A stretch of 52,744 bases of DNA. It comes from Pseudobdellovibrio sp. (lineage in GTDB: Bacteria > Bdellovibrionota > Bdellovibrionia > Bdellovibrionales > Bdellovibrionaceae). The stretch is taken from assembly GCA_023701385.1 (NCBI GenBank), contig JAMPXC010000023.1, positions 1 through 52,744 on the forward strand. The letters run 5' to 3'. Of this stretch, positions 725-12,296 are shown piece by piece. The translations under genes were made by a program, and so were the position numbers. The first letter of the stretch is position 1. Each line of letters starts with the position of its first letter. Under the pieces are notes generated by a model. It was not told where the DNA came from and did not search any database. It saw nothing but the letters and a program-made list of their open reading frames with translations.

Positions 725-924
725 GTAGTTATAAAACTAAGAAAAATCAATCTGCACTCGATTTCAGTTCATTAGATGTTCATTTTGTTGCGCTTGAAAA
801 CGAATCTGCTAGTTCTGCACTTGCAGCGCAAGAGCTAGAGAACTTTGCTGCTCGGCTGTACTACTTAGGGCATCGTCTTGGTCGTCCAAATAGTAAAATT
901 ATCAACGGAGATTTGCATGAGTAA
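721..924 (+). CDS. small orphan protein of the element
   Basis: 67-aa protein between the HTH regulator and the recombinase, overlapping the first by 4 bases and the second by 8. It is hydrophilic, Ser/Ala-rich, with a predicted helix (residues 33-50) and a basic end; no signal peptide, cysteine motif or known domain is visible. The tight overlaps on both sides argue it is a real gene. Function unknown; a recombination directionality factor is one possibility suggested only by its size and place next to a serine integrase. Confidence 0.6.
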   Translation: MSSYKTKKNQSALDFSSLDVHFVALENESASSALAAQELENFAARLYYLGHRLGRPNSKIINGDLHE

Positions 925-2713
925 TTTCAAAATAGCAGCGTATCTAAGGGTTTCAACAGAGGAGCAAGCCGCTTTGGTCGATGGCTCTTTGGACAATCAA
1001 AAATATAGGCTAAGTGCATTCGTTGATCTTAAGAATGTTCAAGAGAAAAAATGGGGTAACATTGTCGATTTTTACATTGATGACGGTTATTCAGCCAAAG
1101 ATACGCGCCGTCCGGCTTTTCAACGTATGATGGGAGATATTCGCAAAGGAAAAGTTAATTTGATTCTGGTGGCTGACTTATCGCGCTTATCGAGAAGTAT
1201 TTCTGACTTTTGTGTAATTCTAGATATGCTTAAAGAGTATGAGTCATCGTTTTTATCTATTAAAGAACAGTTTGATTCAAGTACCCCTTCTGGAAAAATG
1301 ATGCTCTATAATATGATCAATTTAGCTCAGTTTGAACGGGAGCAGACAGCTGAGCGTGTTGCATTAGGATGTCATGCGCGAGCAATGCGTGGCTTACTCA
1401 ACGGTGGTTATCCTATTCTTGGCTATGACAAGTCGCCAGATAAAAAAAGCACTTACATAGTTAATGAACTTGAGGCAGCTCAGGTACGAGCTATTTTTGA
1501 CGAATTTCTTAAAATTGGAACTATCGGGCGCACGACTACAAGATTAAATGAATTAGGTATTAAGCCCAAAGTACATCAAAAAAAACGTCAAAGACTTATG
1601 GACAAGGGAATATGGGGACATGATGCATTGGGAACTCTTCTTAAAAATTATGCTTACATTGGTATGCGAGAAATAAACAAACGCAATGCAAATGTAGTCG
1701 ATAAGAATTTAAAAGCGCACGAAAAGCATCAGATAGTTAAGGGTACATGGCCTGCTATTGTTGATGAAATGGTATTTCAGTCCGCTCAGGTACTTATTAA
1801 AGAAAACCAGCTCAAGGAAAGACGAAGATTAGATGGTGCAGAAAGACGAGTCTTTATCGCATCAGGTTTAGTTTTTTGTCAGGAATGCGGTCGTGCGATG
1901 GTAGGGCAATCGTCACACGGCGAAGTGTCAGTTCATAGATACTACCAGCACGCCAGATCAAAAGGTGATGTCATTAAGTGTTCTGTAAATCGTGTAAAGG
2001 CAGAGGTTATCGAAGAAACCCTATCGAACAATATATACAAGATGCTGAATGATGGTGGGTATCTGGATAATCTAACAAAAGGAATTGCAGCGATTGAAAA
2101 AGGTAAAAATAGCGCAAGTATTCTTTCCAAGAAAAATCTTGAAAAGGAACTTCAAGAAGTTGAAGCGGCCATGAATAATGCTTTTAGTTTTCAGGCAAAT
2201 GCTGACTCAACTCCGGAAGCGTTTAAATTTTTTACTGAAAAAATTGAAACCCTTGGGCTGCGTAAAAAGAAAATTTTAGAAGGTATTGATAGTTTGAAAG
2301 AACACGATTCTGTCGTGTCGTTTGAAGAAGTGAAAAAAAATTTAGATGAAAGAGTAAACGTAATTGCAAAGGGTTGGGCTAAAATGCCAAGTATTCAAAA
2401 AAGAAATGCACTTAAGCGCCTAATCCACAAAGTTGAAATCAATAAACAAGGAATTGGAATTTATTACTATTTCAATTCCTTAAAGGATGAAAGGACTTTA
2501 GGAACCCTATTAGTGGAAAAAAGTAGGGCTGCTAAAATCATTTCAATTGATAAAAATGGAAATCAGGTTAATGGAGAATTTAAGGGGTCTAAACAGTCGG
2601 TTGGGTTTTGCGCAATGACGAAAATGGTGATTCCGGTACGATTCGAACGTACGACCCTCTCCTTAGAAGGGAGATGCTCTATCCAGCTGAGCTACGGAAC
2701 CGCCGGTCAATGA
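917..2713 (+). CDS. large serine recombinase (site-specific integrase)
   Basis: 598 aa from the ATG at 917, which overlaps the upstream gene; an upstream in-frame start at 878 is less likely. The N-terminal resolvase domain (about 5-150) carries YLRVSTEEQ with the nucleophile serine, then the conserved D-L-S-R-L-S-R segment. A recombinase domain follows (about 160-280), a zinc ribbon with CQECGRAM around residue 320 and a further cysteine, then a coiled-coil region (about 390-460). This is the architecture of large serine integrases. The last roughly 30 residues are translated from the antisense strand of the tRNA-Arg gene, so the true protein end may have been created by integration. Function: DNA integration and excision of the element. 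Confidence 0.92.
   Translation: MSNFKIAAYLRVSTEEQAALVDGSLDNQKYRLSAFVDLKNVQEKKWGNIVDFYIDDGYSAKDTRRPAFQRMMGDIRKGKVNLILVADLSRLSRSISDFCVILDMLKEYESSFLSIKEQFDSSTPSGKMMLYNMINLAQFEREQTAERVALGCHARAMRGLLNGGYPILGYDKSPDKKSTYIVNELEAAQVRAIFDEFLKIGTIGRTTTRLNELGIKPKVHQKKRQRLMDKGIWGHDALGTLLKNYAYIGMREINKRNANVVDKNLKAHEKHQIVKGTWPAIVDEMVFQSAQVLIKENQLKERRRLDGAERRVFIASGLVFCQECGRAMVGQSSHGEVSVHRYYQHARSKGDVIKCSVNRVKAEVIEETLSNNIYKMLNDGGYLDNLTKGIAAIEKGKNSASILSKKNLEKELQEVEAAMNNAFSFQANADSTPEAFKFFTEKIETLGLRKKKILEGIDSLKEHDSVVSFEEVKKNLDERVNVIAKGWAKMPSIQKRNALKRLIHKVEINKQGIGIYYYFNSLKDERTLGTLLVEKSRAAKIISIDKNGNQVNGEFKGSKQSVGFCAMTKMVIPVRFERTTLSLEGRCSIQLSYGTAGQ
2625..2701 (-). tRNA. tRNA-Arg (anticodon UCU)
   Basis: The minus strand folds as a full cloverleaf: 7-bp acceptor stem GGTTCCG/CGGAATC with one G-U pair, D stem GCTC/GAGC, anticodon stem TCTCC/GGAGA with loop CTTCTAA (anticodon TCT), five-base variable loop, T stem GTACG/CGTAC with loop TTCGAAT, discriminator A and an encoded CCA. 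It reads AGA codons. The gene is intact despite the recombinase frame running through it on the other strand, so integration restored it or occurred at its 3' edge. Confidence 0.95.
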
Positions 2714-2773: not shown

Positions 2774-3664
2774 TTATTTCACCACTTCTAGTGGTTTACC
2801 TAAATTTAAAGCGCAAAACGACTGCGTTTGGTGCGCTAAAAAGGGCTGGCTACTGTCAGTCATCGGGTTGCCGGTCAAATCAGTAAAGCGGCTAAGGCTT
2901 GGGCCACTAAACTGTAAACTTTTACGGATATCAAGTTGCATGCTCCAGTTCTCAAGCACGAGGGCGGTAAAAGGGTCTTTTAAGCGAATAGTGAATAGGT
3001 AATTCGATTTATCCAGTTTTTTAACTTCGCTATAAAAGAAAAGTTCATAAACATTTGGGGCCATCGGTGAAAGATCCACCGTGGATTTAAGAGTTGTCAC
3101 GTCTTCATCGCGCGAAGGTGTTGCTGAAACCGCCGTATCGTAGCGAAAGTTTAAGTTTGATGCGCTATCAAAAGGCACAGCCATACGGCTAACAGTCAGC
3201 TGGCACTCAGCCGATTTCACCGAAGCCTGTAATTTAAAATCTAAAACATCTTTCAGTTCTTTTTCGTTGAGCAGAAATTCTTCACCTAAAAAAAATTGGT
3301 AAGAACCTGAATTATTTTGGCGAATGCTCGTGGTTGCGCAACTTAAAGTTTTGTAACCTTCGCCGGTTTTCTGGAACAGCAACACGCCTTTTTCTCCGAG
3401 AGGAATATTTTCGCCATTGCAGTTTAAACCATCTTGGCCTTGCACATCTAAGTAAACGTTTTCGATATAACCTTTAAAAACTTTCTCGACACGTACGCGG
3501 GCTTTGCCTTCAGCAAGTGTGATCGTTTCAACTTTGGCGATAATCACATCTTTTGCTTGCGCTGCCTGCTGGGCATTTGCAAAATCAGCGCAGCTGCAGG
3601 CGAAGATTTTTTCACAAAAAAACAGAGATAAAAACAGAGTCGTAAAACCAAGTCGGAAAACCAT
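2774..3664 (-). CDS. secreted TIMP/NTR-like protein
   Basis: 296 aa from the ATG at 3664, which has AGGAG seven bases upstream; an ATG at 3694 would lack it. A signal peptide (residues 1-22) ends at IFA and the mature protein would begin CSC, the hallmark of the TIMP/netrin-like (NTR) fold, in which the N-terminal cysteine chelates metal. The next 100 residues (VIIAKVETI, VEKVFKGY) match the bacterial NTR-like beta-barrel. The C-terminal half is beta-rich and unassigned. Exported, probably periplasmic or outer membrane-associated. A protease-inhibitor role is suggested by the fold but not shown. It stands alone between the tRNA and a plus-strand exported-protein cluster. Confidence 0.7.
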   Translation of the reverse strand: MVFRLGFTTLFLSLFFCEKIFACSCADFANAQQAAQAKDVIIAKVETITLAEGKARVRVEKVFKGYIENVYLDVQGQDGLNCNGENIPLGEKGVLLFQKTGEGYKTLSCATTSIRQNNSGSYQFFLGEEFLLNEKELKDVLDFKLQASVKSAECQLTVSRMAVPFDSASNLNFRYDTAVSATPSRDEDVTTLKSTVDLSPMAPNVYELFFYSEVKKLDKSNYLFTIRLKDPFTALVLENWSMQLDIRKSLQFSGPSLSRFTDLTGNPMTDSSQPFLAHQTQSFCALNLGKPLEVVK

Positions 3665-3779
3665 ACTTGTGCTCCTTTTTTGGGGTTGCGACAACCTAGC
3701 AGATATTATTCTGATGCAAACATTTAATGCCTCTTGTTAGCGGTTTACATTCATGACTGGGCTAATCATCATTTAAGAA

Positions 3780-4946
3780 ATGCGTTTTTTACTTGTATCA
3801 GTTTTTCTGCTTTTGTCTGGCATCCAAGCTCACGCTTACCCTGATTTTATTGGGTACGGTTACCGCAGTTGCCTTGTTTGTCATGAATCGGGTGGCGGCG
3901 GTGGAGCCTTAACTGATTACGGCCGCGGTGTTTTCGCTTCTGAAATCGCAGCTAATCCACTTCGTAAATGGCTTAACGATGAAGAAGCCGCCCAAGTTTC
4001 AAATTTTTTAGGCCCGGTTGAGTTTCCATTCTGGCTCCGTATGGGGTTTAAATATCGTGCTTTAACGGTTGAACGTTCACCGGGAACAAAACCTAAACGC
4101 CAGTATCACTACAACATGCAAAATGATTTAAACTTTAATCTTTTTGCCAATGAAGCGCATACTCTAGGTTTAATCACTACTGTGGGTTATGTTGAAAATC
4201 CGGTCGCTCTTTATCCGAATAAAACGATGAAAGAAGATTCGTATTTATTTTACCGCGAATATTATCTTAAAGCGAATGTCGCGAAAGAGTTTTGGCTTTA
4301 CGCTGGTATGATGGATAAAGTTTTCGGGATCAAAACGGCGAATCATACAGCCGTGAATCGTGCTCCGTTGTCGTTGGGGCAAAATGACCAAGTTCATGCG
4401 GGTTTAGTGCAATGGGCTCGTAAAGACGAAGATATTTTTCTTCAATACTGGTTAGGTAACTTACATCTTCCCAAAGAAGAGCGCCGCCGCGGTGGCAGTA
4501 TCATGCTCGATAAAAAATGGGGCAGCATGCACTCTTGGGGTTTTAGTTATCTCAATGAATCTAAAGAAGGTTTAAAACAGAACATTTATTCTCTTCATAA
4601 CAAAATGGGCTTTCGTGATGGTAACTCATTACTTATGGAAGGTGGTTACCGCGTTGAAACCACGGAGCAAGATGGAACTTCGATTAACAGCAACAGTTAT
4701 TATATTTTCACGCAAAACAATTTAAATTTAGCGCGTGGAGTATTTTTTGTTTCAGGTTTAGAGTTGTCAAAAAATACAACGGTTTCATCAAACCCAGAAA
4801 ATTTACGCTGGGATTTAGGTTTTCTTATTTTCCCAATTCAGAAAGTTGAAGTACGCTTTTCTGGAGTAAATCAAAAAACAATCGGCGCCGAGGACGCAAC
4901 TAAAGATCAATGGTCACTGCAATCACAAATACATTTATCTTTATAG
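3780..4946 (+). CDS. haem-tagged outer-membrane beta-barrel protein
   Basis: 388 aa with a signal peptide (1-19), then a short mature N-terminus with one c-type haem motif C31-L-V-C34-H35 followed by a Gly-rich linker. From about residue 80 to the end the sequence alternates polar and hydrophobic residues in strand-turn-strand units rich in Tyr, Trp and Gly, as in outer-membrane porin-like barrels. First of eight same-strand exported-protein genes; its end overlaps the next gene by 37 bases. No good ribosome site precedes the ATG; TTTACA-N17-CATCAT ends 7 bases before it, so a leaderless start is possible. Haem attachment and a pore or surface electron-transfer role are inferred. Confidence 0.7.
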   Translation: MRFLLVSVFLLLSGIQAHAYPDFIGYGYRSCLVCHESGGGGGALTDYGRGVFASEIAANPLRKWLNDEEAAQVSNFLGPVEFPFWLRMGFKYRALTVERSPGTKPKRQYHYNMQNDLNFNLFANEAHTLGLITTVGYVENPVALYPNKTMKEDSYLFYREYYLKANVAKEFWLYAGMMDKVFGIKTANHTAVNRAPLSLGQNDQVHAGLVQWARKDEDIFLQYWLGNLHLPKEERRRGGSIMLDKKWGSMHSWGFSYLNESKEGLKQNIYSLHNKMGFRDGNSLLMEGGYRVETTEQDGTSINSNSYYIFTQNNLNLARGVFFVSGLELSKNTTVSSNPENLRWDLGFLIFPIQKVEVRFSGVNQKTIGAEDATKDQWSLQSQIHLSL

Positions 4947-5665
4947 TTACCACACTAAGCCTTAGTTTTGCATTTGCCGCTGAAGAAACTGTGCAAATTA
5001 AAAAACAAGAGCGTGAAGAGCTTTTGGAAATGGCTAAAGAGGTTCCTGCGCAAGCTATGCCGCCGGCAGCACCTCCAGCTGCGGGAAAACAAGTTCGCCG
5101 TGTTGTTCGCCGTAAAAAAATCGTGCAAGAACCTGAGACAGAATTGTCATCAAAAATCGGAATGAGTTTAGGAGCCGCTGTTTGGGGTGAACAAATTTTA
5201 CTTCAGTCGGGTGATGGCCGTACTGAGAATATTATCGTTGAATACACTGGCCTTGCGTTGGGGATAGACTACACGCTAAAGGCCGAGTCCGTAGGATGGA
5301 ATAGTGCTGTGAAAGGATTGTTTCTTACCGGTAATGCTCAGGCCGAAGGTCAATCGATCTCATACCAAAATAAAGTCGATGCGATTGCTCCGGTTTTTGT
5401 GAGCACAGGTTTGCGTTTTTATCCGCATGAAAAAGTGAACGTAACATTGAATGTGGGCGCTACATTTTATCAATTAAAGCTGGCAGCACCGACCTCAGTC
5501 GTTACGAATTATGATTTTAAATACGCGGATAGTATGCAACCGATCGCCCAATTACAGCTAGGCTGGATGGTTGCAGAAAACTGGATGTTTCAACAAGAGC
5601 TGTTCGTTAGTGAGAAAAACGAAGCGTCTGTTGGTTGGATTGTCTCACTCGGATACGTTTTCTAA
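4910..5665 (+). CDS. predicted outer-membrane beta-barrel protein
   Basis: 251 aa. Signal peptide (about 1-23, ending AFA), then a charged coiled segment, a Pro/Ala stretch and a basic patch (RRVVRRKK) to about residue 75, then a beta-rich domain with the Gly/aromatic alternation of an eight-stranded OmpA/OprD-like barrel and a final aromatic residue (YVF) typical of barrel assembly signals. The start lies inside the upstream barrel gene, overlapping by 37 bases, so the two are likely coupled. The N-terminal basic linker could contact peptidoglycan or another envelope partner. Exact family not recognised. Confidence 0.65.
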   Translation: MVTAITNTFIFIVTTLSLSFAFAAEETVQIKKQEREELLEMAKEVPAQAMPPAAPPAAGKQVRRVVRRKKIVQEPETELSSKIGMSLGAAVWGEQILLQSGDGRTENIIVEYTGLALGIDYTLKAESVGWNSAVKGLFLTGNAQAEGQSISYQNKVDAIAPVFVSTGLRFYPHEKVNVTLNVGATFYQLKLAAPTSVVTNYDFKYADSMQPIAQLQLGWMVAENWMFQQELFVSEKNEASVGWIVSLGYVF

Positions 5666-5724
5666 ACTAGTCTATACTTTTCAATAAAGACCCTCTTAAA
5701 CTTAGAGCTGGGGGAACGATAACT

Positions 5725-7290
5725 ATGCGTTGTAAACAGACAATGTTTATTTCTTTATTGGCTATTGTTGTAACGTTCGCACAATCCACTCAAGCAGCGA
5801 GTAAGTTAACTGACGTTGAAGTATTCAATCGTTGTTACTTTAAGTTGTTTAAAATGGTTGTGCCTAGAACAGCAAGTTTAGGTAAATCCTTAACCGATGC
5901 AATCTACGCAAAAAAGCTTTCAGGCCCCGCGGCCTGTGCGGTATTGCTTGATCAGTCTGAATTCTTGGATAACGGTAAGAAGCGTGCAGCTAAATACACG
6001 ACTTATCCGGCTTTAACAGAGCAAGAGAATAAAAAGTTAATTGCTAACTTTCATAATTTTCACAACACATGGTTTCAGAAAAAAGCGTTTCTTTTCTCAT
6101 CACTGGGAATCGATATTTCAACTTATGCGATTAAAGATAACGACGAAGCTTCGTTGTATTTTACACGCGCTTTATTTGGAAGCAGCGTTCCTGTTTCAAC
6201 GGTGTTCACAGCTACAAAAACATTACGTGGCTTAAGAGAAGCTCCAGACAAAGCCGCAACGTCTCGTTGGAAATCAAAACCAATGAATGTCGTTAATGAA
6301 GCTGATTTCGGCAATGCAAACGGTTTTGTGATGTCGTTTGGCCCAACAGCATCGTTATCTTCAATTATGGTAAAAGATGAAGATCTAGTGCCATTCGGTA
6401 AATTATATGGTGTTGAAGAAGCTAAGCCATTGATCGTTCCTACAGTGATCATTAATGGTCAGGCGAACGTATCAGCAACTATCCGTAGCCAAATTTCAAT
6501 GGCAGTTTCAGCTAAAAGTAAAGATGTGAACTTATTCGAACACTTAGGTGGCGGTATTTTAGGTTCTCAAACTTTTTACATGAAAAACACGAACTTAACT
6601 ATTGGCCAAATTGCTCCGGGTGCCAACAACGATAAAGATGATGTGGTTGCACGTCGTCTTTCAAGCCGTGTGTTTGAAGATTTATTATGCCATCAAATGC
6701 CAACATTAACTGAAGCTGACGTGGTGAATGATGTAATTCCTAATTCTCCACATGGTTTTAGAATCAATGCTTCATGTATGGCGTGCCATACATCATTGGA
6801 TCCGATGGCTTATTCATTAAGAAATTATGCGCCGTACAGAACGGCAGTAAATCATGACAACACTAACTTAACGCCAGAACAACGTGCGAAGGGAACTCCG
6901 GTTCTTGGTATTACACGTCTTCCGGCCGTTGCAGGTTCAGGTCACTTTGCTTTACAAAAGCCAATGGGTGCATTGAACTATCGTGATCATACGAATAAAT
7001 TATTTAAAATTCCGGTTGAAGGTTCGAGCCAGTTAGGTCTTGAGTTGTCAAAAAGCGACGACTTCTACCGTTGTGTAGCTAAACGTTATTACAACTTCTT
7101 TACGGGTTATGATGTGAACTTAGCTGAGCGTAATGTTCCTGAAGCGAGCAATACGAAAGAAGCTAAATTTCACCGCGCAAAAGTTTATGCTCTTGCGGCA
7201 AGTCTTAAAAAATCTCAAAACATGAATCAAATGATTAAAGAAATCTTCAGCACAGAGGCCTTTGTTTATCGCCAATATTCTCCGCCGTGA
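5725..7290 (+). CDS. exported PSD/DUF1585-type cytochrome c protein
   Basis: 521 aa with a signal peptide (about 1-24). A haem c site is at C351-M-A-C354-H355, followed by TSLDPMAYSLRNY, which matches the C-x-x-C-H plus D-P-M/L-G segment of DUF1588/DUF1585 proteins (PSD family, frequent in Planctomycetes and Myxococcota). The C-terminus (RCVAKRYYNFFTG, then FSTEAFVYR) matches DUF1585. In those bacteria such genes are paired with a Tat-exported DUF1501 or DUF1552 protein, and a DUF1501-like gene follows here. Start chosen for the GGGGG leader ten bases upstream. Biochemical function is not established for the family. Confidence 0.75.
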   Translation: MRCKQTMFISLLAIVVTFAQSTQAASKLTDVEVFNRCYFKLFKMVVPRTASLGKSLTDAIYAKKLSGPAACAVLLDQSEFLDNGKKRAAKYTTYPALTEQENKKLIANFHNFHNTWFQKKAFLFSSLGIDISTYAIKDNDEASLYFTRALFGSSVPVSTVFTATKTLRGLREAPDKAATSRWKSKPMNVVNEADFGNANGFVMSFGPTASLSSIMVKDEDLVPFGKLYGVEEAKPLIVPTVIINGQANVSATIRSQISMAVSAKSKDVNLFEHLGGGILGSQTFYMKNTNLTIGQIAPGANNDKDDVVARRLSSRVFEDLLCHQMPTLTEADVVNDVIPNSPHGFRINASCMACHTSLDPMAYSLRNYAPYRTAVNHDNTNLTPEQRAKGTPVLGITRLPAVAGSGHFALQKPMGALNYRDHTNKLFKIPVEGSSQLGLELSKSDDFYRCVAKRYYNFFTGYDVNLAERNVPEASNTKEAKFHRAKVYALAASLKKSQNMNQMIKEIFSTEAFVYRQYSPP

Positions 7291-7362
7291 TAACGGTGTG
7301 ACCGCTGGGGAGCGGTTAGAGAATAAGGGGTTGGCGATTAAATAAATAACAGGGGGAAATAA

Positions 7363-9000
7363 ATGGGGAACGGACAAAGTCGCAGAAAGTTTTTAGAAAA
7401 CGCTACAAAAAGTTTAGGCTTGGTGGGTATTTCACCAATGATGTCTAACTTCATTGTACAAACACTTTCTTCGCAAGTTTTTGCAGCGGGTACTGCAAAT
7501 ACAAGTGGATCAGATAAGATCTATATTTTCTTTGCTTTACCAGGTGGGCCTCCACGTTGGTTTTTCGATTTACCATTAACCCCTAATGGTAATACTACAA
7601 AATACACTGATGCTTTCTCACACGCCGGTGTAGCCACACATGTTGGTATGGCCGGAGCGGGTGATCCACAGGCGACTTATAAACCGTGGCGTGATCCAAA
7701 AAGTGGATATTGGTTACCTCCCGTGTGGGGTTCAAATCCTTCGGGCGGAAGTTTTACAAATTGTTTAGCGAATGCCGCTTTTATTCGTGGTGTGGATTTT
7801 GAAATTAACAATCACGATTTAGGTCGTTTACGTAATCAATCACCGATCATTGGTGGTTATTCGATTGCGGGCTTATTAGCAGAAAAAACTTTTAATGCAT
7901 TTCCAGCCGCGTCTTCAGGAAGTATTACGAGTGCTTTTAAGGCAACTAAGCCGATGTCACCGGTGGGTCTTAACTATACGGTGAACACAACAACAAACCC
8001 GATTGCTGCGACGATGCGCTATTTCTCGGGTAAAGCTCCGGTAGAAAACTTAGCGGTAGGCCAGGCATTATCAGAGTTTGATAAGTACGCTGATAAAAAT
8101 AACTTTATCCAAAAAAGTTTAACTGAATCAAAAGAAAGATCTGATGCCTTAGTTCAACAAGGTGTTGCGACTTTTACAAATAAATGGCAACCGACTTATG
8201 ATAAGTATTTATTGAAAGTCAGAGAAGCGATGTCGTTAAATAACACATCAGCTTTTATGGACACTAAGCCAATTACGCCACCGCCGATGAAAAACGGTAA
8301 CCCAGATATGCGTACCCGTCGTGCTGACGGTACATTTATGGGTGATCTTTCTGACTACCGTAATATGGTCAATGATCAAACAACAGTTTCAAACTTAGCA
8401 GCTACTTTTGCGACAGTAGAAATTTTAATTACGATGGGCTTAACTCAAGTTGTGACAGCTGACTTAGGCGGTATTGCGAACTTAATTATGAATAATGCCG
8501 GTGGTAAGTTCGCTATTTCTAATGACCAACATTTTATTGGTACTTTAGTTTCTACAATTGCCACAACGTTCATGTACCGTGCGATGATTAATTGCACCGA
8601 AGAGTTAGTGCAAACGTTAAAAGAAAAAGGTCTGTTTGATAAAACGATCATCCAATTCGGTGCTGAATTTAACCGTACTGCAAAAGCCGACGGTTCTGGT
8701 TCAGACCACGGTTTCAAAGGTTGTTCAGTTCTTTTAATTTCAGGAATGATCAAAAAAACACTTGTTCTTGGAAACGTAAAAGAAGATGCAACTTCAACTT
8801 ACAAAGGCCACTGGGGTATGGCAGCACCTCACCCCATTGCAGGTAACGATTATCCATTACGTTTAAATGACGTATGTAAAACGATCTGCGGTATGTTAGG
8901 TCTTAAAAACGTTTCAAATAATGGCGAATACATTTTACAAAACAACGGTTCTCAGTGGGAAGCTTTTACAGGCACTAAAGGAGAGGCGAAAAATGTTTAA
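7363..9000 (+). CDS. Tat-exported DUF1501-like protein
   Basis: 545 aa. The N-terminus has a textbook twin-arginine motif S6-R-R-K-F-L followed by a hydrophobic segment, so it is exported folded, probably with a cofactor or metal. The C-terminal part contains EFNRTAKADGSGSDHG, resembling the E-F-G-R-T...D-H motif of DUF1501 proteins, which have the alkaline phosphatase/sulfatase fold. GGGGG with 6-base spacing precedes the start. Its end overlaps the next lipoprotein gene by 8 bases. It follows the PSD-type cytochrome, the usual partner. Substrate unknown. Confidence 0.75.
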   Translation: MGNGQSRRKFLENATKSLGLVGISPMMSNFIVQTLSSQVFAAGTANTSGSDKIYIFFALPGGPPRWFFDLPLTPNGNTTKYTDAFSHAGVATHVGMAGAGDPQATYKPWRDPKSGYWLPPVWGSNPSGGSFTNCLANAAFIRGVDFEINNHDLGRLRNQSPIIGGYSIAGLLAEKTFNAFPAASSGSITSAFKATKPMSPVGLNYTVNTTTNPIAATMRYFSGKAPVENLAVGQALSEFDKYADKNNFIQKSLTESKERSDALVQQGVATFTNKWQPTYDKYLLKVREAMSLNNTSAFMDTKPITPPPMKNGNPDMRTRRADGTFMGDLSDYRNMVNDQTTVSNLAATFATVEILITMGLTQVVTADLGGIANLIMNNAGGKFAISNDQHFIGTLVSTIATTFMYRAMINCTEELVQTLKEKGLFDKTIIQFGAEFNRTAKADGSGSDHGFKGCSVLLISGMIKKTLVLGNVKEDATSTYKGHWGMAAPHPIAGNDYPLRLNDVCKTICGMLGLKNVSNNGEYILQNNGSQWEAFTGTKGEAKNV

Positions 9001-9724
9001 GTCAATGTATGCTCGAATTTCATTAGTGATCGTCTCTTTATTTGTGATGGTTCACTTCCAAAACTGTGCGCCACAAAAAGAAGATTCAGTTTTCGATTCA
9101 ATGAACAATGCGGGAACTATTGAGCAGATTCACAAAGATAATGATCATGGTAAAGAAATACCGACAGAAGAAAAAACGGCGATGGAGATTTCAAAATCTT
9201 TACTAGACCGTTCGATGATTTATTCATTATTCATTGATATCTTTGGTCCGGATGCAGCCGTGGTTGCAGCGTTAAATCAATTACGTGCTGAGCGTGCGGT
9301 ATTTGGTGGCCCTTGCTCAATTTATGAAAATTTTAAATCGGCCCGTAACGGATTTAAAATGGATTCAGAAGCTGAAAGTTGCGCTAACTCTGAAACAGCG
9401 AACAACTTAGCAGCTCCGGTAAATCCAGTAGCAAACGTATTACAACAAGCTTTAGTGAATGATGTTTGCCAACAGATGATTGGTAACGCAAAAACTTATG
9501 CTTACGCGATTGCACAGATTAAAGAAAGCCCAAGAGTAGCGATTCCGGCAAATAGTTCAGCTAATGTGTTAAAATTATTCCGCTTATTTTACCGCGGAAA
9601 GCCAGATCCAGACTCGTCGCTTGTAAACAGCTTACAAGTTTTAGTGGGTGAACCCGCTAGTCATGATGGTTGGAAGATGGCGATTTCAACGACCTGTGTA
9701 TCAAGCCACTGGCAGGCCCTATGA
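8993..9724 (+). CDS. lipoprotein of the exported redox cluster
   Basis: 243 aa from the ATG at 8993 with GGAGAGG just upstream; the longer frame back to 8921 lies inside the previous gene. Hydrophobic signal (residues 8-22) ends in F-Q-N-C25, a lipobox-like site with Asn at -1. The mature part is helical with a few cysteines and no recognised domain. Overlaps the DUF1501 gene by 8 bases and the cytochrome gene by 4, so it belongs to the same translational chain. Likely lipid-anchored partner of the neighbouring exported proteins; function unknown. Confidence 0.7.
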   Translation: MFKSMYARISLVIVSLFVMVHFQNCAPQKEDSVFDSMNNAGTIEQIHKDNDHGKEIPTEEKTAMEISKSLLDRSMIYSLFIDIFGPDAAVVAALNQLRAERAVFGGPCSIYENFKSARNGFKMDSEAESCANSETANNLAAPVNPVANVLQQALVNDVCQQMIGNAKTYAYAIAQIKESPRVAIPANSSANVLKLFRLFYRGKPDPDSSLVNSLQVLVGEPASHDGWKMAISTTCVSSHWQAL

Positions 9725-10284
9725 TGAAACTTTGGGGGGCCTTAGTTTTCTTTATAGGTTCAATGGCTGCGGCACAAGAAGTTGTGCCGCTGTTTCGCAA
9801 TGATAGCCTTACGACATTTGTAACAATGCCGTTTCGTTTACAGGATGGCAGTGGCCAGGCTATTTCTATTGTGAGCATTGATATCACAAGCTCTAAAGAA
9901 AATTGCCAAGGTATGATTGATCCCAAGATCAGTTCTAATTTTCTGGTCAAATGTACAAAAGAAGGTGCTTTATCTGTTGATGTTTACTTCAAAGACTCAA
10001 GTGGATCGATGATGCGTATCGTTTATGACGACATCACCGTCACTAAAATTTCTGACTCGGCGACAGTGCTACAACCTGTTACCGAAGATCCTGATAAATA
10101 CAAAGCCGGACGTGATTTATTTGCGACGTACTGTATGAAGTGCCATCAGGCCGCACACGATAAAGCTAACAAATCATCAACACAGATTAAAAGTGCGATT
10201 ACCAATATCGGTAGCATGAAATCAATTAAGCTGACTGATGCACAAATCAAATCGATCAGCGAATATCTAAATAACTTAGATTAA
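9721..10284 (+). CDS. small exported monohaem cytochrome c
   Basis: 187 aa starting at the ATG that overlaps the upstream stop (ATGATG; the second ATG is also possible). Signal peptide (1-18, ending AAAQ). Residues 20-110 are a beta-rich, uncharacterised domain; residues 120-187 are a class I cytochrome c with C138-M-K-C141-H142 and a downstream Met in NIGSMK as candidate distal ligand, closing with the usual C-terminal helix. A periplasmic electron carrier, probably serving the PSD/DUF1501 pair encoded just before it. Confidence 0.8.
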   Translation: MMKLWGALVFFIGSMAAAQEVVPLFRNDSLTTFVTMPFRLQDGSGQAISIVSIDITSSKENCQGMIDPKISSNFLVKCTKEGALSVDVYFKDSSGSMMRIVYDDITVTKISDSATVLQPVTEDPDKYKAGRDLFATYCMKCHQAAHDKANKSSTQIKSAITNIGSMKSIKLTDAQIKSISEYLNNLD

Positions 10285-10297
10285 GAAAGGGGGATAT

Positions 10298-10768
10298 ATG
10301 ATTAAATTTAAAAATAGCACAAAAAGAATTGTCCCTCTGTTAGGTTTGATGGGTTTATTTTTATTTCAATTTCAAAATTGTGCGAAAAAAGAATTCGTCT
10401 TTGAAGATTCTCTGGTCACAGATACTATGGATTATTTCGAATATCGCTATGAAAAGGCGACGCCGATTTATTTCGAAGTTCAGGTTTTACCATCAACGTC
10501 AGATGCGACATATCAGTCTTATGATATCTTAGGTTTTGCAACACCATCTGACGGTTCAGAAGTCGCTATCGATTGGAAAATCAACCTTTACGATACCAGT
10601 GGTGTTGCCATCGGTGTTCAAAAAACAGGGCAGCTGGCTGCCGGCGACACGCGCATCAGTGAAACTTACACAACTTATAAAACAAAAAAAATAGGATCAG
10701 CAGTGATTCAAGTGAAGAAAGCAACAGAGGTAAACTATTATGAATACAAAAAAATATACAACTACTAA
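10298..10768 (+). CDS. small lipoprotein with FQNC lipobox
   Basis: 156 aa. A basic start and hydrophobic core (10-25) lead to F-Q-N-C28-A, the same unusual lipobox as the lipoprotein encoded at 8993. The mature domain is beta-rich, suggestive of an Ig-like or PKD-like fold (alternating strands from YFEVQVLP onward), but no family is certain. A GGGGG leader lies four bases from the start. The 3' end overlaps the YceI gene by 29 bases. Probably an envelope-anchored component of the same cluster. Confidence 0.65.
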   Translation: MIKFKNSTKRIVPLLGLMGLFLFQFQNCAKKEFVFEDSLVTDTMDYFEYRYEKATPIYFEVQVLPSTSDATYQSYDILGFATPSDGSEVAIDWKINLYDTSGVAIGVQKTGQLAAGDTRISETYTTYKTKKIGSAVIQVKKATEVNYYEYKKIYNY

Positions 10769-11255
10769 ACTAAGCCTATTAACTACAGCCGTTGTACTTG
10801 CCTTTACAATGAAAGCACACGCAGGCCAGGTTGAGGCTTCGGTCGTTGTAAATCCTGTAGGTGATTTCACTGCAGAATTTAAAGACATTGATGGTTTTGC
10901 TTATGTTGATGGTGACGGTTTTAAAGCCGATGCTTTTGTTATTCCATGGTCAAAAGTTGATACCGGCATGAGCGTTCGTAACAAACACACCAAAGAGTAT
11001 TTTCACGCTGATAAATACCCAAATATCGAAGTTATGCAAGCTATCGGTAAAGGTGGCAAAGGTGTTGCCAAAATTAAAATGAATGGCGAAGAGCAAATCG
11101 TTAAGGGAACATACACTAAAGATGGTAATAACATCGTGGCCGAATTTCCTGTGACTTTAAGTAAGTTCAAAGTAACGAACATTAATTTTAAAGGCGCTGG
11201 TGTACAGGACGAAGTCAAAGTTAAAGTCACCGTACCTATCAAAGCTAAAAAGTAA
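10740..11255 (+). CDS. YceI family periplasmic protein
   Basis: 171 aa with a signal peptide (about 1-28, ending AHA). The mature domain matches YceI: an initial beta-strand region, then the conserved S-V-R-N/D-x-H...Y-F-x-A-D-K-Y-P block and a lipocalin-like series of strands. YceI-like proteins bind polyisoprenoid or other amphiphiles and often accompany cytochromes (cytochrome b561 neighbours in other bacteria). AGAGG precedes the start. Last gene of the exported redox cluster; a hairpin at 11271-11303 follows. Confidence 0.8.
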   Translation: MNTKKYTTTKLSLLTTAVVLAFTMKAHAGQVEASVVVNPVGDFTAEFKDIDGFAYVDGDGFKADAFVIPWSKVDTGMSVRNKHTKEYFHADKYPNIEVMQAIGKGGKGVAKIKMNGEEQIVKGTYTKDGNNIVAEFPVTLSKFKVTNINFKGAGVQDEVKVKVTVPIKAKK

Positions 11256-11270
11256 TCCCATTTTGAGACA

Positions 11271-11303
11271 GTGTCGGGCCGATGGTGTAAAATGGCCTGA
11301 CAC
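11271..11303 (+). terminator. 10-bp hairpin after the YceI gene
   Basis: GTGTCGGGCC pairs with GGCCTGACAC (one G-U pair) around a 13-base loop. No T-run follows, so it may be a rho-assisted end or an mRNA 3' stabiliser rather than an intrinsic terminator. Confidence 0.4.
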
Positions 11304-11414
11304 ATGTATGCTTAACGCTTACACCCGTATCAAGTCGCCACAATCAGGTATCAATAAACAAATCTAAGACGGCACAAGTTTCGCTTTATATCTTCTCTGG
11401 GTGGGGGAAATGAT

Positions 11415-12296
11415 ATGAAGCACATTTTATTTCTGAGTTTGATTCTTGCGGCGCTTGTCGCCAATGCTCAAGAGTTCCAAGTTAATGTTGTTGAAACAGA
11501 TCCTAATCTAGAAATTAAAATCCAGAGCGCTGAAACAGAAGCGCAAGCGGTTGAAGATTGCGTGGGTTGTAATGATAACCCTTCATTAGCCCCTCAACCG
11601 GTGGCTACGATCGCTGAAACCGGTGCTCACTTAGATAAAGTCAGCTCTGAAGAAGGCTGGATGAACGCGTGTAGCGAATTCGTACAAGATGGTGAGATCG
11701 GCCAGTACGGCGACATGATCCGTAGTGAAGTGATGAAGCCAAACCAGTATATGAATATAAAAAAAGGCGATGCTGATTTAGCAGGTCTTTGTCCGAATTA
11801 TCCGATGATGGATGATAGCAGTAAGGCCAATGTTTTTTTATTAATTTTAACCTCAATGGCGTTTGAAGAAAGCTCGTGTAATAACGATAAATCAACGCGC
11901 GGCCCGAATGGAACGGCCAAAGGTTTCTTTCAGTTACATTTAGGTAAAGAAGCTTCATACGGTCCAGAGTGTAATAACTTCGATAGCCGCACAGGAGCAG
12001 GCAGTGTTATGTGCTCTTTAAGTGTTATTAATAAACAAATGGGTGATGGCGATTTATTCCGCCAGGATAGTAACTACTGGGATGTATTGCGTCCACAACG
12101 TTGGAGCAAGAAAAAGAAAAAATACTTTCCTAACCCGTCTTACGCGCAAATCAGAGTAGCTATTGCTGAGTTTGCACCATGTAATGAAAGACAAAGTTCA
12201 TCTTTAGCTACAGATGTAAAGACCAATAAACAATTATTCCAAGTGATGGATAAAAAGATTTTTCATAAAGCTGAAGTTGTAGAATTTGATCTGTAA
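11415..12296 (+). CDS. exported lytic-transglycosylase-like protein
   Basis: 293 aa with a signal peptide (1-18). After an acidic linker with C-V-G-C, residues about 140-260 resemble the lysozyme/SLT fold: AFEESSCN around E151-E152 (catalytic Glu candidate), then G-x-x-K-G-F-F-Q-L-H, corresponding to the G-L-x-Q motif of family 1 transglycosylases. Several paired cysteines suggest disulfides in the periplasm. Would cleave peptidoglycan glycan strands. GGGGG leader with 7-base spacing. It ends inside the convergent YihY gene, overlapping by 34 bases. Confidence 0.65.
   Translation: MKHILFLSLILAALVANAQEFQVNVVETDPNLEIKIQSAETEAQAVEDCVGCNDNPSLAPQPVATIAETGAHLDKVSSEEGWMNACSEFVQDGEIGQYGDMIRSEVMKPNQYMNIKKGDADLAGLCPNYPMMDDSSKANVFLLILTSMAFEESSCNNDKSTRGPNGTAKGFFQLHLGKEASYGPECNNFDSRTGAGSVMCSLSVINKQMGDGDLFRQDSNYWDVLRPQRWSKKKKKYFPNPSYAQIRVAIAEFAPCNERQSSSLATDVKTNKQLFQVMDKKIFHKAEVVEFDL

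What the first reader, a model, noticed from the sequence alone, without database searches (positions are those of the whole stretch)
3780..11255. Exported haem/Tat/lipoprotein module
Eight same-strand genes with overlaps encode only exported proteins: a barrel with an N-terminal CxxCH, a second barrel, a PSD/DUF1585 cytochrome, a Tat DUF1501 protein, two lipoproteins, a monohaem cytochrome and YceI. PSD and DUF1501 pairs are known from Planctomycetes and Myxococcota, but linking them to haem-tagged barrels and lipoproteins could mean an envelope-spanning redox machine.
Basis: partly seen in the sequence, partly recalled or inferred. Interest (0 to 1): 0.68.

Follow-up and report, generated by a model that had tools for sequence, protein, structure and literature searches.

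The report
Haem-carrying porin gene module
This stretch encodes an outer-membrane channel with one built-in haem, next to other exported haem proteins, anchored proteins and a lipid-binding protein; the same set recurs throughout the phylum of predatory bacteria around Bdellovibrio, and it may carry electrons across the cell envelope, although no function has been tested.

Summary
The eight genes are real, lie on one strand at 3780-11255 and are tightly packed.

The key part is g1 (3780-4946). AlphaFold2 (pLDDT 92) gives a 16-stranded porin closest to OprO/OprP with a short N-terminal monohaem domain, the architecture of the Fe(II) oxidase Cyc2. All 105 distinct full-length relatives have exactly one CxxCH, but none has Cyc2's diagnostic motif, so it is Cyc2-like and not a Cyc2.

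The exact eight-gene order occurs only in near relatives. The parts stay together much more widely: of 80 named Bdellovibrionota loci found with g1 alone, 72 have the second barrel next to it, 68 a small haem lipoprotein, 55 YceI, and 42 a PSD cytochrome module (PSD-DUF1501-lipoprotein, or a parallel set with an unrelated-looking Tat protein). All 15 complete or nearly complete genomes checked have g1 within 10 kb of one of these modules (0.2 expected).

Most likely this is a trans-envelope redox conduit. Architecture and linkage are shown; electron transfer, its direction and its substrate are inferred. I found no description in the literature searched.

The parts
3780..4946 (+). g1: haem porin; signal peptide, N-terminal monohaem domain, 16-stranded outer-membrane barrel
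   Evidence: AF2 pLDDT 92.4, 16 strands; best PDB matches OprO/OprP Z 25.7/25.3; one CxxCH in 105/105 relatives
3870..3884 (+). CxxCH (CLVCH) haem attachment motif of g1
   Evidence: residues 31-35 of the ORF; invariant in A3
4910..5665 (+). g2: small outer-membrane barrel (weak OmpW match), overlaps g1
   Evidence: OmpW E 0.03, below cut-off; profile hit next to g1 in 72/80 loci; no CxxCH in 98 members
5725..7290 (+). g3: PSD2/PSCyt3-like monohaem protein
   Evidence: Pfam PSD2 4.6e-5, PSCyt3 1e-3, both below cut-off; exactly one CxxCH in 52/52 relatives
7363..9000 (+). g4: Tat-exported DUF1501 protein with alkaline-phosphatase-superfamily fold
   Evidence: Pfam DUF1501 3e-9; twin arginine in most relatives; AF2 pLDDT 89.9; best Z 17.0 to PafA
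8993..9724 (+). g5: putative lipoprotein (FQN|C), cysteine-rich, follows g4 in module A
9721..10284 (+). g6: exported monohaem cytochrome (CMKCH at 10132-10146)
   Evidence: Pfam Cytochrom_C 1.7e-4, above cut-off
10298..10768 (+). g7: second putative lipoprotein (FQN|C)
10740..11255 (+). g8: periplasmic YceI-like lipocalin
   Evidence: Pfam YceI 2.5e-10, 41.3 bits against cut-off 23.7; found near g1 in 55/80 loci

Best explanation
The locus is a conserved, phylum-specific envelope module built around a haem porin, a fused monohaem cytochrome and 16-stranded OprO/OprP-like barrel with Cyc2-like architecture. Most likely it moves electrons between the periplasm and the outer membrane or outside. 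The c-type haem at the periplasmic mouth of g1 would exchange electrons with the periplasmic monohaem proteins (g3, and g6 or the small haem lipoprotein of other loci). YceI, whose relatives bind ubiquinone-8, would link these to the quinone pool or sweep up oxidised lipids. The Tat-exported DUF1501 protein and the lipoprotein work with the PSD cytochrome, either as an enzyme producing the electron donor or acceptor, or as an assembly partner. Shown: architecture, mono-haem conservation and linkage. Inferred: electron transfer, its direction, the substrate, the position of the haem, and physical assembly.
For: The g1 model has pLDDT 92.4 and 16 strands, with OprO/OprP best (Z 25.7/25.3, about 297 residues), the same template reported for Cyc2 (PMC8406198). 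Single CxxCH in 105/105 g1 and 52/52 g3. Linkage was seeded on g1 only: 80 named loci with g2 72, haem lipoprotein 68, YceI 55, PSD module A or A' 42. 15/15 complete or nearly complete genomes are linked within 10 kb against 0.22 expected, and co-occurrence in 369 genomes has odds ratio 20, uncorrected for kinship. The linkage state changes at least 31 times on the g1 tree, so it is not one inherited block. YceI lipocalins carry ubiquinone-8 and act with a cytochrome in Burkholderia (PMC9113575).
Against: No redox, haem or localisation data exist. One haem per protein gives no continuous wire as in MtrCAB; a 16-stranded barrel with one haem is enough only if Cyc2 really works that way. About half of the g1 loci have no PSD module within 10 kb, so that part is not obligatory, although many of those loci are truncated. 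The DUF1501 fold is a hydrolase fold, not a redox enzyme. Genomes are related, so the p-values are inflated. The haem could be structural.
Confidence: 0.55

Rival explanations
1. Nutrient scavenging: g1 is an uptake porin for an organic phosphate or sulfate ester, the DUF1501 protein (alkaline-phosphatase-superfamily fold) cleaves it, PSD and cytochrome oxidise the released sugar or alcohol, and YceI or the lipoproteins bind it. The haem of g1 is a gate or only structural.
For: Fold of g1 nearest to the phosphate and pyrophosphate porins OprP and OprO; g4 nearest to phosphatases and sulfatases with invariant D/H residues; PSCyt genes neighbour sulfatase genes in Verrucomicrobia (PMC5615132).
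Against: OprO/OprP is also the fold assigned to Cyc2. Invariant barrel residues are mixed acids and bases, not an arginine ladder. A strictly invariant haem and three haem proteins are hard to explain by uptake alone. No sugar transporter or glycosidase was seen among the recurrent families inspected.
Confidence: 0.2
2. Envelope antioxidant system: a Bdellovibrionota counterpart of BcnA-LcoA, in which YceI-bound quinone quenches lipid peroxyl radicals and the c-type haems recycle it at the outer membrane.
For: YceI near g1 in 55/80 loci; YceI/BcnA is needed against lipid peroxidation in Burkholderia (PMC9113575).
Against: No cytochrome b561 among the genes around the module or as a recurrent family among those inspected; does not explain the porin, DUF1501 protein or PSD cytochrome.
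Confidence: 0.15
3. No common function: several independent envelope genes that happen to lie in a region tolerant of secreted-protein genes.
For: The exact gene order is kept only in near relatives; arrangement and strand vary.
Against: 15/15 complete or nearly complete genomes linked against 0.22 expected; odds ratio 20 for co-occurrence; linkage re-made or lost many times on the tree.
Confidence: 0.07

Closest known systems
Cyc2 fused cytochrome-porin (Fe(II) oxidase of iron-oxidising bacteria; PMC8406198)
   Same: Signal peptide, short N-terminal domain with a single CxxCH, 16-stranded porin of OprO/OprP fold; AxPxF lies upstream of the haem in 62/105 members
   Different: AXPXFAR[Q/K][T/Y] absent in 105/105 and PXL after the haem absent in 105/105; always followed by DYGR/DYAR; a linked second barrel, YceI and PSD module; hosts are mostly relatives of heterotrophic predators, as far as their names tell
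PSCyt/PSD cytochromes with DUF1501 neighbours of Planctomycetes and Verrucomicrobia (PMC5615132)
   Same: PSD2/PSCyt3-like haem protein next to a DUF1501 protein; function unknown there too
   Different: Pfam scores of g3 below the curated cut-off; followed by a cysteine-rich putative lipoprotein; often near a haem porin
YceI/BcnA-LcoA lipid peroxyl detoxification system (PMC9113575)
   Same: YceI lipocalin encoded with a cytochrome
   Different: c-type haem proteins and a porin instead of membrane cytochrome b561
MtrCAB/Pcc porin-cytochrome conduits
   Same: Outer-membrane barrel plus c-type haem
   Different: Haem fused to the barrel and only one per protein; no multihaem cytochrome in the window module

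Membership tests
Cyc2 cytochrome-porin | Single CxxCH at the N terminus of a signal-peptide-bearing protein | tested here: met
   105/105 members with exactly one CxxCH; hydrophobic signal-like N-termini in the members listed
Cyc2 cytochrome-porin | 16-stranded porin of OprO/OprP type | tested here: met
   AF2 model with 16 strands; OprO/OprP rank first in VIA-align, Z 25.7/25.3
Cyc2 cytochrome-porin | AXPXFAR[Q/K][T/Y] motif upstream of CXXCH, stated to be unique to Cyc2 (PMC8406198) | tested here: not met
   0/105; only AxPxF in 62/105
Cyc2 cytochrome-porin | PXL motif 4 aa after CXXCH | tested here: not met
   0/105
Cyc2 cytochrome-porin | Fe(II) oxidation | not testable with these tools
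   needs purified protein or cells
DUF1501 (PF07394) | Score above Pfam gathering cut-off | tested here: met
   36.9 bits against 27
Alkaline phosphatase superfamily (g4) | Fold | tested here: met
   The 50 rows listed are alkaline phosphatases, NPPs, sulfatases and phosphonate hydrolases; best Z 17.0, 307 aligned, rmsd 4.4
Alkaline phosphatase superfamily (g4) | Catalytic nucleophile and two-metal ligands | tested here: inconclusive
   D69, H151, D388, H390, D448, H449 conserved in 86-100% of 44 rows, but no nucleophile was assigned
PSD2 / PSCyt3 (PF07624, PF07627) | Score above Pfam cut-off | tested here: inconclusive
   23.5 against 25.8 and 19.8 against 27; one CxxCH in 52/52
YceI (PF04264) | Score above Pfam cut-off | tested here: met
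   41.3 against 23.7 bits
OmpW (PF03922), for g2 | Score above Pfam cut-off | tested here: not met
   14.7 against 24 bits; only 1 of 15 members aligned matches
BcnA-LcoA system | Cytochrome b561 gene next to the YceI gene | tested here: not met
   No b561 match among the ten proteins of 2774-12296
MtrCAB/Pcc porin-cytochrome | Multihaem c-type cytochrome | tested here: not met
   In 3780-11255 only g1, g3 and g6 have CxxCH, one each

The most novel reading that the evidence does not exclude
Bdellovibrionota, including the predators Bdellovibrio, Bacteriovorax and Halobacteriovorax, share a previously undescribed extracellular or prey-facing electron-transfer route, made of a new clade of haem porins that exchanges electrons by way of YceI-borne quinone and monohaem proteins and is coupled to an exported PSD cytochrome with an alkaline-phosphatase-fold partner.
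Probability: 0.25. Interest if true: 0.85.

Novelty: new variant of a known kind. Interest (0 to 1): 0.62.

Why it matters
Cytochrome-porin fusions are known as iron oxidases in lithotrophs. A separate clade of them kept across a phylum rich in bacterial predators would mean that these cells exchange electrons at the outer membrane, perhaps with prey or its lipids, which to my knowledge has not been proposed for them. The module also gives a concrete, genetically tractable setting, in Bdellovibrio laboratory strains, for the PSCyt/PSD-DUF1501 pair, described in Verrucomicrobia with no known function.

Tried and rejected
PDB sequence search with the g1 profile or with g4: nothing meaningful. 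Pfam on g1, g5 and A' Tat proteins: no family, apart from one g1 member hitting Porin_O_P at 6e-5. I first treated the A' Tat protein as DUF1501-like; profile comparison gave no support, so A and A' are reported as parallel modules, not homologues. cGAMP/GEMM riboswitch control, as in Geobacter electron transfer, was considered because Bdellovibrio makes cGAMP: no riboswitch in the window or ten related loci. Promoters and terminators not above shuffled background. Literature on Bdellovibrio with YceI, DUF1501 or Cyc2: no relevant paper in the library. I had no authentic Cyc2 sequence to align, so the Cyc2 test rests on the published motif and architecture. The membership of each locus uses my own profiles (E <= 1e-3), which were partly trained on some of the same genomes.

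Full report
OBSERVATION. Spacing is tight: g1/g2, g4/g5, g5/g6 and g7/g8 overlap, and the other gaps are 13 to 72 nt. Pfam gives DUF1501 for g4 and YceI for g8 above cut-off, cytochrome c for g6 above cut-off, and PSD2/PSCyt3 for g3 and OmpW for g2 below cut-off. NCBIfam adds nothing. Only g1 of the two barrels has CxxCH. The gene upstream (2774-3694) is on the other strand. A secreted protein at 11415-12296 follows, but I saw it with the module only in B. qaytius (L031). One promoter ahead of g1 is plausible, but the scan did not exceed shuffled background.

THE HAEM PORIN. I aligned 52 sequences of g1 from the whole phylum. AlphaFold2 gave pLDDT 92.4 and pTM 0.88: an N-terminal helical domain of about 55 residues holding CxxCH, then exactly 16 strands. 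Foldseek and VIA-align place OprO and OprP and other 16-stranded porins first (VIA-align Z 25.7, 25.3). The Cyc2 literature reports the same fold and the same two templates for Cyc2 (PMC8406198). Among 105 distinct full-length relatives all have exactly one CxxCH and all carry DYGR or DYAR shortly after it; 62 share AxPxF exactly 12 residues before it; none has the Cyc2-specific AXPXFAR[Q/K][T/Y] or the PXL motif. It is therefore built like a Cyc2, but fails the published membership test. Invariant residues in the barrel include M94, D160, H170 and R340 (mature numbering); M94 or H170 could be the second haem ligand (inference).

DISTRIBUTION. The profile finds g1 in 232 of 369 genomes of the phylum. 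A scan of 84,980 named genomes returned 118 relatives. The 80 listed appear to be Bdellovibrionota: Bdellovibrio bacteriovorus, B. qaytius, Bacteriovorax, Halobacteriovorax, Oligoflexia, and some loosely named MAGs. The scan patterns were strict, so absence elsewhere is not proved.

CONSERVED NEIGHBOURHOOD. Around the DUF1501 gene, the order g3-g4-g5 is kept in nearly all of about 40 loci across the class, with g6-g7 following in about ten. Around g1, the g1-g2 pair appears in 40 of 40 phylum-wide loci, and YceI is nearby in most. Clustering also found a small monohaem lipoprotein in 41 loci and a parallel module A' (PSD-like haem protein, lipoprotein, Tat protein, haem lipoprotein). In the 80 loci found with g1 alone: g2 72, haem lipoprotein 68, YceI 55, module A or A' 42. 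The haem-lipoprotein profile is broad, so 68 may include unrelated monohaem proteins. In 15 complete or nearly complete genomes, every one has g1 within 10 kb of an A or A' module, against 0.22 by random placement; over 369 genomes, strong g1 and A-or-A' co-occur with odds ratio 20. These figures are not corrected for kinship. On a quick tree the linkage state changes at least 31 times among 86 labelled tips (shuffled mean 41), and A versus A' at least 12 times, so the company is repeatedly kept, lost or re-formed. The exact eight-gene order is seen only in the near relatives L031, L032 and, without YceI, L033.

THE OTHER PARTS. g3 and its relatives each hold exactly one CxxCH (52/52). g4 has a twin-arginine signal (SRRKF) like most relatives, and its AF2 model (pLDDT 89.9) has the alkaline-phosphatase-superfamily fold, best Z 17.0 to PafA, followed by NPPs and sulfatases. 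D69, H151, D388, H390, D448 and H449 are highly conserved, compatible with a metal site, but I could not name a nucleophile. The A' Tat protein is not shown to be related. g5 is a cysteine-rich family without Pfam match. Its signal ends in FQN|C or YQN|C, an atypical lipobox, so lipidation is an inference.

HOW IT MOST LIKELY WORKS. YceI lipocalins bind ubiquinone-8 and, in Burkholderia, act with a cytochrome against lipid peroxyl radicals (PMC9113575). PSCyt/PSD genes have conserved partner genes and no known function (PMC5615132). Combining these, the simplest reading is a trans-envelope redox path ending in the haem porin. Shown here: architecture, one-haem conservation, and linkage. Inferred: electron transfer, direction, substrate, and complex formation. 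Rivals are ester scavenging through the porin with the DUF1501 hydrolase fold, and an antioxidant system.

VERDICT. A real, phylum-wide module, new as a set in the literature I could search, built from variants of known kinds. Function is unproven.

Noticed in passing
L118:5245-7218 and L119:5261-7240 (G258, G261; also G259, G260): The haem porin is fused in frame behind a lipoprotein-signal-peptidase (LspA) domain (PF01252 8e-13), in ORFs of 655-663 aa in four genomes, each of which also has a separate standard LspA.
   Followed up: partly
window 9056-9069, 10370-10383; many loci: Putative lipoproteins of this module end their signals in [FY]QN|C (FTQ|C or FNH|C in module A'), an atypical lipobox; the window genome has three LspA matches and G004 two. 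Perhaps a dedicated signal peptidase.
   Followed up: partly
window 878-2713 and 2625-2701: A recombinase-like gene (LRVSTEEQ, resolvase/serine-recombinase type by eye) ends over a tRNA-Arg(tct) gene on the other strand, the edge of an integrated element close to the module; near relative L031 also has a tRNA beside it.
   Followed up: no
L057:7353-14999: Tandem duplication of the g3-g4-g5 unit.
   Followed up: no
L049:10926-15080 and L051:2243-6346: Giant exported proteins of about 1,370-1,385 aa that match the lipoprotein and cytochrome profiles of the module, directly next to PSD and DUF1501 genes: apparent fusions.
   Followed up: no
L031 and L056 (B. qaytius): One genome carries two divergent copies of the haem porin plus PSD-DUF1501 locus.
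   Followed up: no
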